Source: a virus. From it: a stretch of DNA of 64,000 nucleotides. The notes beneath the pieces were generated by a model that worked only from the letters and a program-made list of their open reading frames with translations, was not told the origin of the DNA and ran no database searches. A program made the translations under genes and the position numbers. Where the stretch lies: the IMG/VR virus record IMGVR_UViG_3300036715_003541, positions 21,346-85,345 of that record; one strand, written 5' to 3'. Of this stretch, positions 41,618 through 56,705 are shown in pieces (the first letter of the stretch is position 1; the number at the start of each line of letters is the position of its first letter).

Positions 41618-42211
41618 TCAAGCGTCACTATAACCAAGCAATTCGGGGGTCAATTCAAAATCATTCCCTCTTATTTTTTCAATAACCAAAAACTTATTCT
41701 TCCAAGCTTTTTTGTTTTTGGATTTCTGCAATAATATTTTCTTCAATCTATCATATTTTGTATATTTATGTCTTAATAAAAAATGAGAAAGTAATGAAAT
41801 ATCATTCCAATAATATTGCACCAATTTGTATGTTTTTTTATATAGCTTTTTTTTATAATTTGTTCGGTTTGTTTTTTTGTTTAAATTTGATTTTGCAATA
41901 ATTTTTGATATTTGAGTTAAATCAAAAGAAGATGGTCTTTTTAAGAAAAAAGGTAATTTGGAGTTTCCAGTAGACAAATAATAATGGTAACTTTCAGAAG
42001 CTAAACCAGCATAGAAAAATTGTATTATTTTTAAAGCATATTTATCATCATCAGATTGATAATCTATATAAAAAGTTTCACCATGAATATACTTTTTGCT
42101 ATGCATAGAAATAGAATCAATAAACAAACAATGATGTAAACCAATGATAGCATGTGCTGCTTCATGGAAAGCCAACAAAATTTTTTCATATACCAAGCCT
42201 GTATTTCTCAT
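41618..42211 (-). CDS. FtsH-type (M41) zinc metallopeptidase without AAA domain
   Basis: 197 residues. FHEAAHAIIG gives the HExxH site (His16, Glu17, His20), and SSFDLTQISKI carries a candidate third ligand Asp97, as in M41 peptidases of FtsH. AGLASESYHYYLSTG fits the helix before it. The AAA+ motor and membrane helices of FtsH are absent, so it must work with another unfoldase or on loose substrates. It is AT-rich and very Lys/Tyr/Asn-rich. AGGA precedes the ATG. It lies beside the IscB remnant. Confidence 0.75.
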   Translation of the reverse strand: MRNTGLVYEKILLAFHEAAHAIIGLHHCLFIDSISMHSKKYIHGETFYIDYQSDDDKYALKIIQFFYAGLASESYHYYLSTGNSKLPFFLKRPSSFDLTQISKIIAKSNLNKKTNRTNYKKKLYKKTYKLVQYYWNDISLLSHFLLRHKYTKYDRLKKILLQKSKNKKAWKNKFLVIEKIRGNDFELTPELLGYSDA

Positions 42212-42284
42212 TTTTATTACTTCCTAACGATTGGAGCGTTCAGTCGAACTCGAACCAAAAACAACTAGAATGGAAACCCACTAA
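42212..42284 (-). other. Noncoding spacer between M41 peptidase and iscB remnant
   Basis: 73 bases. The only notable piece is GGTTCGAGTTCGACTGAACGCTCCA (minus strand), slightly reminiscent of a tRNA 3' end, but it has no matching 5' half. The AGGA ribosome site of the M41 gene lies at the low-coordinate end. Nothing else supported. Confidence 0.4.
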
Positions 42285-42765
42285 TTATCCTAAAAATACC
42301 ATTTTGTATTTTAAATACGTTTTTATTTTTAAATCTTCTGATTTAATATTTTGCGCCAATCTTTTATAATTAAAAGTATCATGTAAACTAACTCTATTAT
42401 TACTAGTGCACCAATTAAACAATATCCATATTTCTTATGTCTCACCAATGTCCCGCGCTTTATTCCAAGACTCATTGTTGATCCATATTTCTTACGAATA
42501 CATCCTTTTGATGGTATTAATACATGTAACTACCTTCTGGAAAATACTAATGGTTCTAAATATGTTAATCTTTTATTCTCTGGTAACTTATCGCCACCTA
42601 AAACTAAATTACATAATGTCCAACTATCTACAGCATGTGCCTCAAATATTTTATCCAATTTCTTTGAAGTTTTCTTTAAATTAAGTCTTTGACGCTCATT
42701 ATTCTTGCTCTTTTTTCCGAACAAGGCATTAATGACTTTTTATTTTTATCTAATACTGGTATCAT
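42285..42765 (-). pseudogene. Decayed iscB (RNA-guided IscB/OMEGA nuclease)
   Basis: Three pieces align in order with IscB. First, from ATG 42763-42765, IPVLDKNKKSLMPCSEKRAR matches the PLMP/RRXRR N-terminus. Second, in the next frame (to 42530), LDKIFEAHAVDSWTL matches the RuvC-III segment, then LEPLVFSRR meets a TAG where Gln is expected. Third, beyond it, KKYGSTMSLGIKRGTLVRHK and KYGYCLIG, then after a one-base shift TSNNRVSLHDTFNYKRLAQN, match the C-terminal domain. RuvC-I, RuvC-II, the bridge helix and HNH are deleted. It is dead: a deletion, a nonsense codon and a frameshift. Confidence 0.85.
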
Positions 42766-42985
42766 ACTTTATCTTTGTTGCGCTTACGCGCCTTGTTTTA
42801 ATTTCTCTTCGCTACTCGTCAATATAGGGAAAAAGGACTAGAGAGGTATCCTTAATGTATAATGGTCTACCACGACCTATTGACTTAGTTGACTTCAAAT
42901 AACCCTGCTTACGCATGATTTTGTCTAAGCTAATCTCCATTTACTTTACTTAGTCTTGGTTAAAGTTTTCATAAAGCACCTATTG
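42766..42985 (-). ncRNA. Candidate omega-RNA-like structured region upstream of iscB remnant
   Basis: IscB guide RNAs are encoded directly 5' of iscB. This roughly 220-base region can form several hairpins: gcgc/gcgc at 42780-42791, aagga/tcctt at 42833-42853, ggtc/gacc at 42864-42877 and ctaag/cttag at 42925-42953. None is strong and no covariance can be checked here. A 42-aa ORF lies in the same place, so the two readings compete. Confidence 0.25.
42812..42940 (-). CDS. Possible small protein (42 aa), competes with omega-RNA reading
   Basis: From ATG 42938-42940, 42 residues with protein-like composition: MEISLDKIMRKQGYLKSTKS, then IGRGRPLYI and a hydrophobic end. It has no clear ribosome site. 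It may be a small gene, a fragment of a gene broken by the iscB element, or chance. Confidence 0.25.
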   Translation of the reverse strand: MEISLDKIMRKQGYLKSTKSIGRGRPLYIKDTSLVLFPYIDE

Positions 42986-43032
42986 CTAGGCTGTTGATAT
43001 TCTATTGATATTTTTTTCTTAATTTTGTTAGA

Positions 43033-43311
43033 TTACTCATGCAATTTTAAAATATTTTCTATGTTTGATATTACATAATTTGTATCTTTGTTTTTGAATT
43101 TCAATGTTAATTTATTTTGACCAATTGTACCTGTAATAATGCAGTCATCATTTTCCATGTAAATAATTCCATTTTTTGTAAAATGTGACAATTCATTAAA
43201 ATGAAAAGAAGCCAGATGAGATATTGTTAATATACTCGCTGGCTTCTCCAATATAAATATAATGCTTTGAGCACCACAGCATGAATTAATTGATAGCTTT
43301 TCAAATTTCAT
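43033..43311 (-). CDS. Hypothetical small protein
   Basis: 92 residues, with CC in NSCCGAQSIIF and a beta-rich middle. No family recognised. Separated by 14 bases from 43326-43631. Confidence 0.5.
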   Translation of the reverse strand: MKFEKLSINSCCGAQSIIFILEKPASILTISHLASFHFNELSHFTKNGIIYMENDDCIITGTIGQNKLTLKFKNKDTNYVISNIENILKLHE

Positions 43312-43648: not shown

Positions 43649-44899
43649 TCAAGGTAGCAAAATCGTACGTTTAGCCAATGTTTCTAAAACGTGTATGTTT
43701 CTTATTTTTTCAAACATCAATTGAATTGTTCCATTATCTTGGGCATTACGTATAATCTTCTCAAAATAATTTTCTTGACCAGACTTTCTAGCTTGTTGAT
43801 ACAACATATCTAAAACTTCAGTATCTGATAAGAATGCCTCAGGATCATTCATTTGAATAGCTCCCAAGATAAGTGAAAGCTTTAAAGCTCTTTCTGCAAT
43901 AGTTAAGAATTGATCTTTCACAGATTGTGGTACAGAATCATAATCAGCACCCATAGATTTTAATTGTGCCTTTGCTTGTCTTTCAGACAAAAATGCAGGT
44001 ACTTTAAAATCATGCATATCGATAAGTTTATCACCAACAGCATCATTTACTTTTTGTTGCAATTCCAAGCCAATTTGTTCATGAACAAAATTGCTAATCA
44101 CACCTTTTAATTCTTCGATTGAAGAGTATCCGGATTTCTTAGCCAATTCATCATCCAAAGGTGATGGTATTGATTTTGATCCAGCTAAAAGAGTAACTTC
44201 AACTTCAACTTTTTGGTCACCTAACTCAACCAATAATTTTGATTTGTCATTTAAAACAAAACGTCTTGTTTCTGTTAGTTTCATCCCCAATAAATTGGTG
44301 TCAAATTCTGGTATTTTTGAAAAACCAACATCAATCATTTCCCCCTCTTGAGAAAGTTCTTTTTTAAGAACTCCATCAAAGAAATAATAAACATCAATGA
44401 TTATAGAATCATTTGTTTGAATGAAATCTTCTTCTGTAAAAGAAACGATATCTGAAAATTTCCTTCTTACATCTTCTAGCTTTTGTTGGACAATTGCCTC
44501 TGCATCTGCTGAAGAATAAGGTTTAGGAACTTCTAAAGAAGATAAATCTTGAAGATCAAATGTTGGTGCACTTTCTACGATAAAAGTACATTCAAATTGA
44601 TCTTTGTCAATTTTGATATCCAATGGTGTTTGATTGATTGGTTTTAGTTTTTGATCAATAACAACATCATTGAAAGCTTCTTCAACATAAGCTTGTTTTA
44701 AAGCTTCATCAATTTGTTTTTTGTAATAAGAAATTACAGTTGCTTCTGGCGTTTTGCCTTTTCGATTGCCTGGTACTGGCGCTGATTTGAATGCCTTTAT
44801 TACATTTCTTTTTTTATCAGACATTTTTTTATCTGATAATGAGCATTTATAATTTATTTTTTGTTTACAATATTCTAATTCTTGCGATTCAATTTGCAT
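43649..44899 (-). CDS. tig: Trigger factor (ribosome-associated chaperone)
   Basis: 416 residues, close to bacterial length. The N-terminal ribosome-binding loop is present as GNRKGKTPEATVISYY (bacterial GFRKGKxP), about residues 43-60. The FKBP-like PPIase domain (about 145-235) aligns by pattern: DSIIIDVYYFFDGVLKKE, then VGFSKIPEFDTNLLGMK and KVEVEVTLL. The C-terminal arms follow (PSPLDDELAKKSGYSSIEEL, later ERQAKAQLKSMGADYDS). The tip changes F to N in the first loop position. It should dock at the exit tunnel and fold nascent phage proteins. Phage trigger factors are rare. Confidence 0.87.
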   Translation of the reverse strand: MQIESQELEYCKQKINYKCSLSDKKMSDKKRNVIKAFKSAPVPGNRKGKTPEATVISYYKKQIDEALKQAYVEEAFNDVVIDQKLKPINQTPLDIKIDKDQFECTFIVESAPTFDLQDLSSLEVPKPYSSADAEAIVQQKLEDVRRKFSDIVSFTEEDFIQTNDSIIIDVYYFFDGVLKKELSQEGEMIDVGFSKIPEFDTNLLGMKLTETRRFVLNDKSKLLVELGDQKVEVEVTLLAGSKSIPSPLDDELAKKSGYSSIEELKGVISNFVHEQIGLELQQKVNDAVGDKLIDMHDFKVPAFLSERQAKAQLKSMGADYDSVPQSVKDQFLTIAERALKLSLILGAIQMNDPEAFLSDTEVLDMLYQQARKSGQENYFEKIIRNAQDNGTIQLMFEKIRNIHVLETLAKRTILLP

Positions 44900-55095: not shown

Positions 55096-55401
55096 TCACT
55101 GATCTTGATAGTCTTTTTCTTTTGATTTGCCGTCTTTTTTATCTTTTGGCTTTTTGGCTTTTTCAGTTTGTTCAAATAACTTTGATTTTGCTTCTTGTCG
55201 TTTTCGACGGCGTTTTTGAGATGGCTTCTCGTAAGTCGATTTCTCCTTATAAAGAGAAATGATTTTTTCCTTTTGAACAAGCGCTCGAAACATTCGAGAG
55301 GCGCGATCGAAATTACCGCCATGAACTTTTACTTCAAGTGGTTTTAAATCAAGTAATTCACCAGGACGAACAGTTTCAGTTTCTTTGTATTCTTTTTTCA
55401 T
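55096..55401 (-). CDS. rpsU: Ribosomal protein bS21 homologue
   Basis: 101 residues from ATG 55399-55401 (GAGG 6-7 bases upstream; an earlier Met at 55413 would use part of the overlapping stop). Residues 22-75 match bS21: LEVKVHGGNFDRASRMFRAL, then a KEKIISLYKEKSTYEKPSQK segment and KRRRKRQEAKSKL (bacterial pattern F-D-x-A-L-R-R-F-K-R ... YEKPxxxRKRK). The C-terminal tail is a basic extension (KAKKPKDKKDGKSKEK). bS21 helps bind mRNA near the anti-Shine-Dalgarno site. A phage copy could bias host ribosomes toward phage messages. Confidence 0.87.
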   Translation of the reverse strand: MKKEYKETETVRPGELLDLKPLEVKVHGGNFDRASRMFRALVQKEKIISLYKEKSTYEKPSQKRRRKRQEAKSKLFEQTEKAKKPKDKKDGKSKEKDYQDQ

Positions 55402-55409
55402 AACTAGCC

Positions 55410-56705
55410 TCATTTAATATATTGATCAATTGAAAATTGTGTTTGTGAAGATTGTTTTTTATCATTCACGATTTGTTGTAATGCAGATTTTACATCTTTA
55501 TAAGATGCTTTCAAATTGGACGTGTTGCTTGACTCTTTTTTAGACAAACATGAAAACATAGAAGAAACGTATATTTCTTTCAAATAAGCATAAGATAATT
55601 TATTTGAAAAACATTCTTTTGCTACCTCAGTATATTGCTTTTGAGTTAATGATTTCTTAAACCATTTCTTCAAATAAACTTCACACATTTCTTGTGTGGG
55701 TAACTTTATCTCAAATTTACGATCAAATCTTGATGGTCTTTCAAGAATAGATGACTTTAATTTCTTTGGATCATTTGCCGTTGCTACAATGAAAAAACCA
55801 TTTGCAGAAGACACACCATCAAGCAAATTCAAAAATGCTGACATATCAATTGCACCAGATGCCATCATGGAATCTAAATCTTCTATATAAAGAAGAGCAG
55901 GGCTTTGTGTTTTTGCATAAGCAAATGCTTCTTGCAATGAAACTAAATCTGATTGTGGTGGAATGGTAATTGGCTTAAAATTATAAACAGACATTATTGT
56001 TTTGATAATGCTTGTTTTGCCAGTGCCAGGTGGACCCAGTAAAAGCATACCTCTTTTCCAAGGTATTTTATTATCCAAGTAAAATTGTTTGTTATTCAAA
56101 AATCCCTCAATTGTTGAAATAACTTGTTCTTTTGTTTCTTGCTCAAGAAACAGATCATCCCAAGATAAATCCTTGGAATAAGGAATAGGTGAGCTATTTA
56201 CTACAGCAATAACATGATTCTCATGGTCTTTTTCAATAAGCCATTGCTCATATTCTTTCTTGAATTCAAGATACTTATCAAGTAAGGAATCTTCCACACC
56301 AACAACAAATGTTAATTCATCTTCATTGTTTGTACCTTTTTGAAACAAGGAAGATAATACAAATACTAAATCTCCCTTGGAAACTTTAAAAGCACCAATC
56401 AATATGTATCTTTCCTCAAGATCCGTTTGAGCCCATGATGTAACAGAATGCTTGTAAACGTAACTTACTTGAACATCCTTTTCTTTACAAAAAGAAACAA
56501 ACTTATTATCAACCGTTATTTTATTATGTGCCAATAATGTGTATTTTTCGCCGGGTATTGCCTGGTCTAAATAATTTGAAACCATTTGACAATGCTCTCC
56601 GTAAGAATTTATATCTGATGGTTTAAATCCGGATGTGAGACTTTCATCTTTAATAAATTCTAATACGTCTTTATTTAATTTCTTTAATTCCATTAATTTT
56701 TTCAA
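55410..56705 (-). CDS. BCS1-like AAA+ ATPase
   Basis: 431 residues. Walker A LLLGPPGTGKTSI near 215-228, Walker B ALLYIEDLDSMM, sensor and arginine-finger region IVATANDPKKLKSSILERPS then RFDRKFEIKLP. The N-terminal 190 residues are a partner domain, not a transmembrane one. The closest known type is the BCS1/proteasome-like clade of AAA ATPases. Substrate unknown. It could act as an unfoldase for phage or host proteins, for example with the M41 peptidase. Confidence 0.82.
   Translation of the reverse strand: MKKLMELKKLNKDVLEFIKDESLTSGFKPSDINSYGEHCQMVSNYLDQAIPGEKYTLLAHNKITVDNKFVSFCKEKDVQVSYVYKHSVTSWAQTDLEERYILIGAFKVSKGDLVFVLSSLFQKGTNNEDELTFVVGVEDSLLDKYLEFKKEYEQWLIEKDHENHVIAVVNSSPIPYSKDLSWDDLFLEQETKEQVISTIEGFLNNKQFYLDNKIPWKRGMLLLGPPGTGKTSIIKTIMSVYNFKPITIPPQSDLVSLQEAFAYAKTQSPALLYIEDLDSMMASGAIDMSAFLNLLDGVSSANGFFIVATANDPKKLKSSILERPSRFDRKFEIKLPTQEMCEVYLKKWFKKSLTQKQYTEVAKECFSNKLSYAYLKEIYVSSMFSCLSKKESSNTSNLKASYKDVKSALQQIVNDKKQSSQTQFSIDQYIK

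What the first reader, a model, noticed from the sequence alone, without database searches (positions are those of the whole stretch)
42285..42985. Dead IscB (OMEGA) locus inside a phage genome
Three separate frames carry, in order, the IscB N-terminus (IPVLDKNKKSLMPCSEKRAR), RuvC-III (FEAHAVDSW) and the C-terminal domain (KKYGSTMSLGIKRGTLVRHK). The middle with HNH and most of RuvC is deleted, plus a nonsense codon and a frameshift. Upstream, on the correct side for an omega RNA, lies a region with several weak hairpins. The scar suggests a phage that once carried an RNA-guided nuclease, perhaps used against rivals or as a mobile element.
Basis: partly seen in the sequence, partly recalled or inferred. 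Interest (0 to 1): 0.85.

Follow-up and report, generated by a model that had tools for sequence, protein, structure and literature searches.

The report
Broken IsrB element in phage gene
A phage genome carries a small mobile element whose RNA-guided DNA-nicking enzyme (IsrB, a relative of the ancestor of Cas9) has been wrecked by a large deletion, while the guide-RNA part and both ends of the element are still there, sitting inside a phage gene that lacks the element in related phages.

Summary
Window 42285-42765(-) holds the first ~21 residues, RuvC-III and the TAM-interacting domain of an OMEGA protein. About 180 codons are missing, with one nonsense codon and a frameshift. None of the relatives fetched and examined (about 340-410 aa) has an HNH-type motif, including an intact copy in a related 394-kb phage, so an HNH domain was probably never there. 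Upstream, a covariance model trained without the window finds the omega-RNA scaffold at 42796-42894(-): 83.7 bits, E = 2.4e-19, the only hit in the 85-kb record, 19 of 21 pairs kept. Two related phages have an empty site; joining the window's flanks restores frame and length. The element (about 42190-42998) therefore sits inside the HExxH gene, and its right flank starts with ATGA, matching the published IsrB TAM (NTGA). It is most likely a recently killed IsrB/omega-RNA element, an ordinary fate for mobile elements. Similar internal-deletion and omega-RNA-only elements occur in other phages, so work in trans is possible but unproven. Novelty is modest: a new member of a known kind, with an interesting omega-RNA-only side finding.

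The parts
42190..42998 (-). whole element footprint (~809 bp, +/- 1 base at each end): omega-RNA, broken isrB, right end
   Evidence: 5' end from conserved omega-RNA start in relatives; right end from in-frame joining of flanks to match G002/G003 and BLAST alignment starting exactly at E of EKILL (one residue earlier)
42766..42998 (-). omega-RNA scaffold; core 42796-42894 hit by CM, 3' hairpin GGCGCGTAAGCGC at 42780-42792
   Evidence: model R1 built from 31 relatives without the window: 83.7 bits, E=2.4e-19, 19 of 21 pairs kept; blastn to omega-RNAs of relatives at the same offset
42999..43018 (-). presumed 20-nt guide: left flank of the element, last bases of the interrupted gene's 5' part
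   Evidence: position directly 5' of the scaffold as in IsrB (PMC9581776, 20-nt guide); inference, no RNA data
42676..42765 (-). IsrB N-terminal fragment (PLMP motif: LMPCSEKRAR identical to the IsrB of related phage G003)
   Evidence: Pfam RRXRR 1.7e-4, NCBIfam 5e-4, 14/21 identical to G003 N-terminus
42530..42724 (-). IsrB RuvC-III fragment (RLNLKKTSKKLDKIFEAHAVDSW...), ends at a TAG nonsense codon
   Evidence: tblastn 45-54% to relatives
42329..42529 (-). IsrB WED/TAM-interacting domain fragment, same frame after TAG
42285..42422 (-). IsrB C-terminal fragment in a third frame (TSNNRVSLHDTFNYKRLAQNIKSEDLK)
   Evidence: second hit
42271..42279 (-). right-end motif GGGTTTCCA shared with relatives' elements
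   Evidence: downstream sequences of relatives
42186..42189 (-). ATGA, first bases of right flank, fits IsrB TAM NTGA
   Evidence: TAM from PMC9581776 and PMC11237433
42999..43040 (-). 5' stub of the interrupted HExxH gene (MSNLTKLRKKYQ, then TAG)
   Evidence: aligned with G002/G003
41618..42211 (-). remainder of the HExxH (Peptidase_M41-like) gene; first ~7 codons, start codon and RBS lie in the element's right end

Best explanation
This is a decayed IsrB/omega-RNA (OMEGA) mobile element in a large tailed phage. The intact ancestor inserted into the 5' end of a phage HExxH gene at an ATGA motif. It made an omega-RNA whose guide is the adjacent left flank, and an HNH-less RuvC nickase, IsrB. 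That complex would nick DNA carrying the uninterrupted site (guide match followed by NTGA), favouring retention or spread of the element among co-infecting genomes. An internal deletion of about 540 nt, a nonsense codon and a frameshift then killed IsrB. The omega-RNA and the ends remain because too little time has passed, or because the element can be served in trans. Shown here: fragments, omega-RNA, insertion, empty sites in relatives. Inferred: guide identity, nicking, homing, and time of death.
For: IsrB fragments with E to 5e-33. Full-length relatives carry only RRXRR in Pfam, with no HNH, none of those fetched matches the CxxC...H screen, and P0001 hits solved IsrB 8dmb at 4.5e-39 against IscB at 2.4e-10 or weaker. 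Omega-RNA CM hit E=2.4e-19 with a model that has compensatory changes at 19 of 21 pairs. Empty site in two relatives, G002 and G003, flanking genes homologous. Joined flanks give RKK+5 codons+E as in both relatives. G003, a 394-kb relative, has an intact IsrB at another place, and the window's N-terminus matches it best. Precedent: Microcystis IsrB gene with 207 bp upstream and 59 bp downstream inserted at ATGA in phage Mic1 gp49 (PMC11237433).
Against: The original middle of this very copy is gone, so absence of HNH is inferred from relatives. The left flank has a TAG where the intact gene should read through; it must be a later mutation, or the boundary is a few bases off. The stretch from GGGTTTCCA to ATGA is ~80 nt, longer than in most relatives. 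No near-identical sister phage covering the locus was found, so the deletion cannot be dated. The tree join with G003 is long-branched.
Confidence: 0.85

Rival explanations
1. Non-autonomous omega-RNA element: the omega-RNA is still transcribed and works with an IsrB supplied in trans, from elsewhere in the phage genome, a co-infecting phage or the host. The internal deletion made a MITE-like derivative rather than a corpse.
For: Scaffold score lies within the range of intact relatives (83.7 against 43-107 bits for most held-out loci); protein keeps fewer near-invariant residues (30/36, 1st percentile) than the RNA (43/53, 15th percentile). Recurrent pattern in phages: L088/L137 truncated, L140 reduced to stubs in a 618-kb phage, L144, L146, L148, L154 omega-RNA without IsrB. 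L144 and L146 share 86% over 301 bp ending at ATGAG with unrelated right flanks. Related phage G003 keeps an intact IsrB.
Against: No IsrB other than the broken one in the 85-kb record. No transcription data. Retention of RNA may only reflect recent death; the loci were found through omega-RNA or protein similarity, so the sample is biased. G003's own omega-RNA is divergent (51 bits), so its IsrB may not bind this one.
Confidence: 0.2
2. Dead IscB (with HNH).
For: N-terminal fragment matches the NCBIfam guided_IscB profile, but only in the shared PLMP region.
Against: Relatives fetched by C-terminal similarity are about 340-410 aa where complete, and none shows an HNH-type motif; Pfam finds only RRXRR in representatives; the closest N-terminus belongs to an HNH-less protein; top solved structure is IsrB.
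Confidence: 0.05
3. Chance matches or unrelated gene fragments.
For: Individual Pfam hits are below the gathering score because the pieces are short.
Against: Independent E-values of 1e-28 or better for the C-terminal part, 2.4e-19 for the omega-RNA, correct order and spacing, and an insertion relative to two other phages.
Confidence: 0.01

Closest known systems
IsrB of Desulfovirgula thermocuniculi (DtIsrB, PDB 8dmb, PMC9581776)
   Same: PLMP N-terminus, RuvC-III and TAM-interacting domain order, omega-RNA upstream, no HNH in relatives, NTGA TAM fits ATGA here
   Different: DtIsrB is intact and active; the window copy lacks RuvC-I, bridge helix and RuvC-II; omega-RNA is ~230 nt here against 284 nt including guide
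Microcystis ORF2067 IsrB inserted in cyanophage Mic1 gp49 (PMC11237433)
   Same: IsrB gene plus ~200 bp upstream and a short downstream piece, inserted in a phage gene at ATGA
   Different: there the IsrB gene is full length and came from the host; here it is broken and its source unknown
Intact IsrB of the related 394-kb phage contig IMGVR_UViG_3300047994_000374 (G003, L213)
   Same: LMPCSEKRAR N-terminus, HNH-less, omega-RNA upstream, related phage
   Different: different insertion site, divergent omega-RNA (51 bits), open reading frame
IscB / HEARO (Rfam RF02033)
   Same: shared PLMP, RuvC and C-terminal architecture; L003 omega-RNA weakly hits HEARO (E=0.0024)
   Different: HNH present in IscB, absent in these relatives; window omega-RNA not hit by RF02033
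omega-RNA-only phage elements L144, L146, L154 (found here)
   Same: omega-RNA plus right end without a working IsrB
   Different: they keep no recognisable IsrB sequence

Membership tests
IsrB (OMEGA nickase) | N-terminal PLMP domain motif | tested here: met
   Pfam RRXRR 1.7e-4 on 42676-42765; LMPCSEKRAR shared with G003 IsrB
IsrB (OMEGA nickase) | split RuvC (I, II, III) with bridge helix | tested here: not met
   only RuvC-III (HAVDS) remains; RuvC-I, bridge helix and RuvC-II deleted. Intact relatives have them. So it is a remnant, not a working member
IsrB (OMEGA nickase) | no HNH domain, ~350 aa | tested here: inconclusive
   region lost in this copy; about 340-410 aa and no HNH motif in relatives
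IsrB (OMEGA nickase) | TAM-interacting C-terminal domain | tested here: met
   42-47% identity to relatives across the RuvC-III to C-terminal region, with TAG and frameshift
IsrB (OMEGA nickase) | upstream omega-RNA | tested here: met
   CM R1 E=2.4e-19
IsrB (OMEGA nickase) | right flank starts with NTGA TAM | tested here: met
   ATGA at 42186-42189 at the flank junction deduced from empty sites
IsrB (OMEGA nickase) | RNA-guided nicking | not testable with these tools
   needs biochemistry
IscB | HNH domain between RuvC-II and RuvC-III | tested here: not met
   no HNH in the window; none in relatives
HEARO RNA (RF02033) | reaches Rfam gathering score | tested here: not met
   no hit in window even at E<=10
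IS200/IS605 transposon | Y1 transposase TnpA | tested here: not met
   no PF01797 in the 85-kb record or G003; record is a fragment
non-autonomous (MITE-like) element | several dispersed copies mobilised in trans | tested here: inconclusive
   one copy in the record; dispersal suggested only for L144/L146

The most novel reading that the evidence does not exclude
Phages carry a class of non-autonomous OMEGA elements: omega-RNA plus element ends, with IsrB deleted or absent, kept and spread in trans by an IsrB encoded elsewhere in the same phage, a co-infecting phage or the host. The window locus would be an early internal-deletion member of this class.
Probability: 0.2. Interest if true: 0.65.

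Novelty: new member of a known kind. Interest (0 to 1): 0.42.

Why it matters
It shows that IsrB, the HNH-less relative of Cas9's ancestor, moves through large phage genomes. The window and two relatives show the element inside a phage gene and the same place empty, which gives a natural guide, target and TAM set that can be tested. The recurrent loss of the protein with retention of the RNA in several phages makes it testable whether omega-RNAs act in trans as non-autonomous elements.

Tried and rejected
Rfam HEARO on the window at gathering and at E<=10: no hit. Single-sequence RNA fold: not more stable than shuffles. Single-protein searches of viral contigs with the HExxH protein, the RuvC-III ORF and DnaE: no relative. 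Genome scan with the bare fragment: none, then an alignment worked. I first placed the right end at TTGG (42255-42258) from the GGGTTTCCA spacing in relatives, and rejected that because only ATGA at 42189 restores the frame and codon number of the interrupted gene. Restart of the HExxH gene at 42211 as the native start rejected: homology begins at E of EKILL (one residue earlier). Literature for Ktedonobacter trans omega-RNAs not in the library.

Full report
What is there. The minus strand of 42285-42765 carries, in order, an IsrB/IscB-type N-terminus (42676-42765), a RuvC-III piece (42530-42724), the first part of the C-terminal domain in the same frame after a TAG (42329-42529), and the last ~45 residues in a third frame (42285-42422). 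The N-terminal piece hits Pfam RRXRR at 1.7e-4 and NCBIfam guided_IscB at 5e-4. The rest, read through with X at the stop and at the frameshift, hits a Stanieria plasmid protein at 50% identity (5e-33) and huge-phage record LR745208 at 45% (9e-29).

Which family. Complete relatives fetched through the C-terminal part (80 cellular and 40 viral loci) are about 340-410 residues long, and none shows a CxxC...H HNH-type motif. Pfam finds only RRXRR in representatives, including the intact protein of the related phage G003. The Stanieria relative hits the solved IsrB 8dmb at 4.5e-39 and IscB chains at 2.4e-10 or worse. IsrB is described as a ~350-aa IscB homologue lacking HNH, with an NTGA TAM (PMC9581776). 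The parent was therefore almost surely IsrB, and the claim that HNH was deleted is not supported. The deletion removed about 180 codons: RuvC-I, bridge helix, RuvC-II and linkers.

The omega-RNA. The upstream region aligns with the corresponding regions of relatives. A covariance model from 31 relatives, window left out, has 21 pairs, 19 with compensatory changes. It finds the window at 42796-42894(-) with 83.7 bits, E=2.4e-19, 19 of 21 pairs kept, and nothing else in the 85-kb record. Most held-out relatives score 43-107 bits. The window keeps 43 of 53 omega-RNA columns conserved at 80% (15th percentile of intact loci) but only 30 of 36 near-invariant protein residues (1st percentile). The difference fits a dead protein and a less damaged RNA, but does not prove selection.

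The insertion. A terminase search found relatives of the phage, among them a 394-kb contig (G003) and a 35-kb contig (G002) sharing DnaE and trigger factor in the same order. In both, the 92-aa gene (homologous to window 43033-43311) is followed at once by the HExxH gene (homologous to 41618-42211), with no element. In the window about 820 bp separate them. The left flank reads MSNLTKLRKKYQ from an ATG at 43040; homology on the right begins at EKILLAFHE. Joining the left flank ending at 42998 or 42999 with the right flank starting at ATGA (42189), or one base earlier, gives RKK, five codons, E, as in both relatives; one of the five is now TAG. The element is thus about 42190-42998, inside the 5' part of the HExxH gene, with ATGA as the first bases of the right flank. 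The current start codon and ribosome-binding site of the HExxH gene (42211) come from the element's right end. A host IsrB gene inserted at ATGA in phage Mic1 is a published parallel (PMC11237433).

Mechanism. Shown: an IsrB-type element with omega-RNA inserted at NTGA and later broken. Inferred from the known biochemistry of IsrB: the guide is the left flank, so the complex would have addressed uninterrupted alleles, as a homing or retention device. There is no evidence for use against rivals. No Y1 transposase is in the record or in G003, but the record is a fragment.

Wider pattern. G003 has an intact IsrB elsewhere, and the window N-terminus matches it best (14 of 21); the tree also joins them, with a long-branch warning. 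A pattern scan of viral contigs for the omega-RNA core gave mostly loci with IsrB. It also gave truncated copies (L128/L137; L140 in a 618-kb phage) and four loci without IsrB (L144, L146, L148, L154). L144 and L146 are 86% identical over 301 bp that ends at ATGAG, with unrelated right flanks. This keeps open the reading that such loci are non-autonomous elements served in trans. The sample is biased towards loci that still have the RNA or the protein, so I put that reading at about 0.2.

Limits. No sister phage covering the locus was found, no expression data exist here, and the record is a fragment of a probably much larger genome.

Noticed in passing
L144 (IMGVR_UViG_3300037086_000458) and L146 (IMGVR_UViG_3300038499_000012): omega-RNA-only elements without IsrB in two phage contigs, 86% identical over 301 bp, similarity stopping at ATGAG with unrelated right flanks: candidates for trans-mobilised OMEGA elements.
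   Followed up: partly
L140, contig IMGVR_UViG_3300022719_000283 (618,736 bp), omega-RNA at 604951-605049(-): IsrB reduced to about 8 N-terminal and 28 C-terminal residues beside an intact omega-RNA (97.1 bits); the same contig has a Y1 transposase at 55131-55493.
   Followed up: partly
L088/L148, contig IMGVR_UViG_3300035150_000015: one phage with two omega-RNA copies, one beside a truncated IsrB, one with no IsrB at all.
   Followed up: partly
window 43649-44899(-): phage-encoded trigger factor (TIGR00115 E=1e-47, just below cut-off), conserved next to DnaE in relatives including a 394-kb phage.
   Followed up: partly
window 41618-42211(-) and 43033-43311(-): conserved pair of small genes between trigger factor and DnaE: a HExxH protein resembling the Peptidase_M41 domain and a 92-aa protein of unknown function.
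   Followed up: partly
window 42190-42270(-): about 80 nt between the right-end motif GGGTTTCCA and ATGA, longer than in most relatives, containing GGTTCGAGTTCGACTGAACGCTCCA, which looks a little like a tRNA 3' end; ARAGORN finds no tRNA.
   Followed up: no
G000 (85,345 bp): record is probably a fragment of a much larger phage genome: DnaE of a 394-kb contig is 56% identical with shared gene order.
   Followed up: partly
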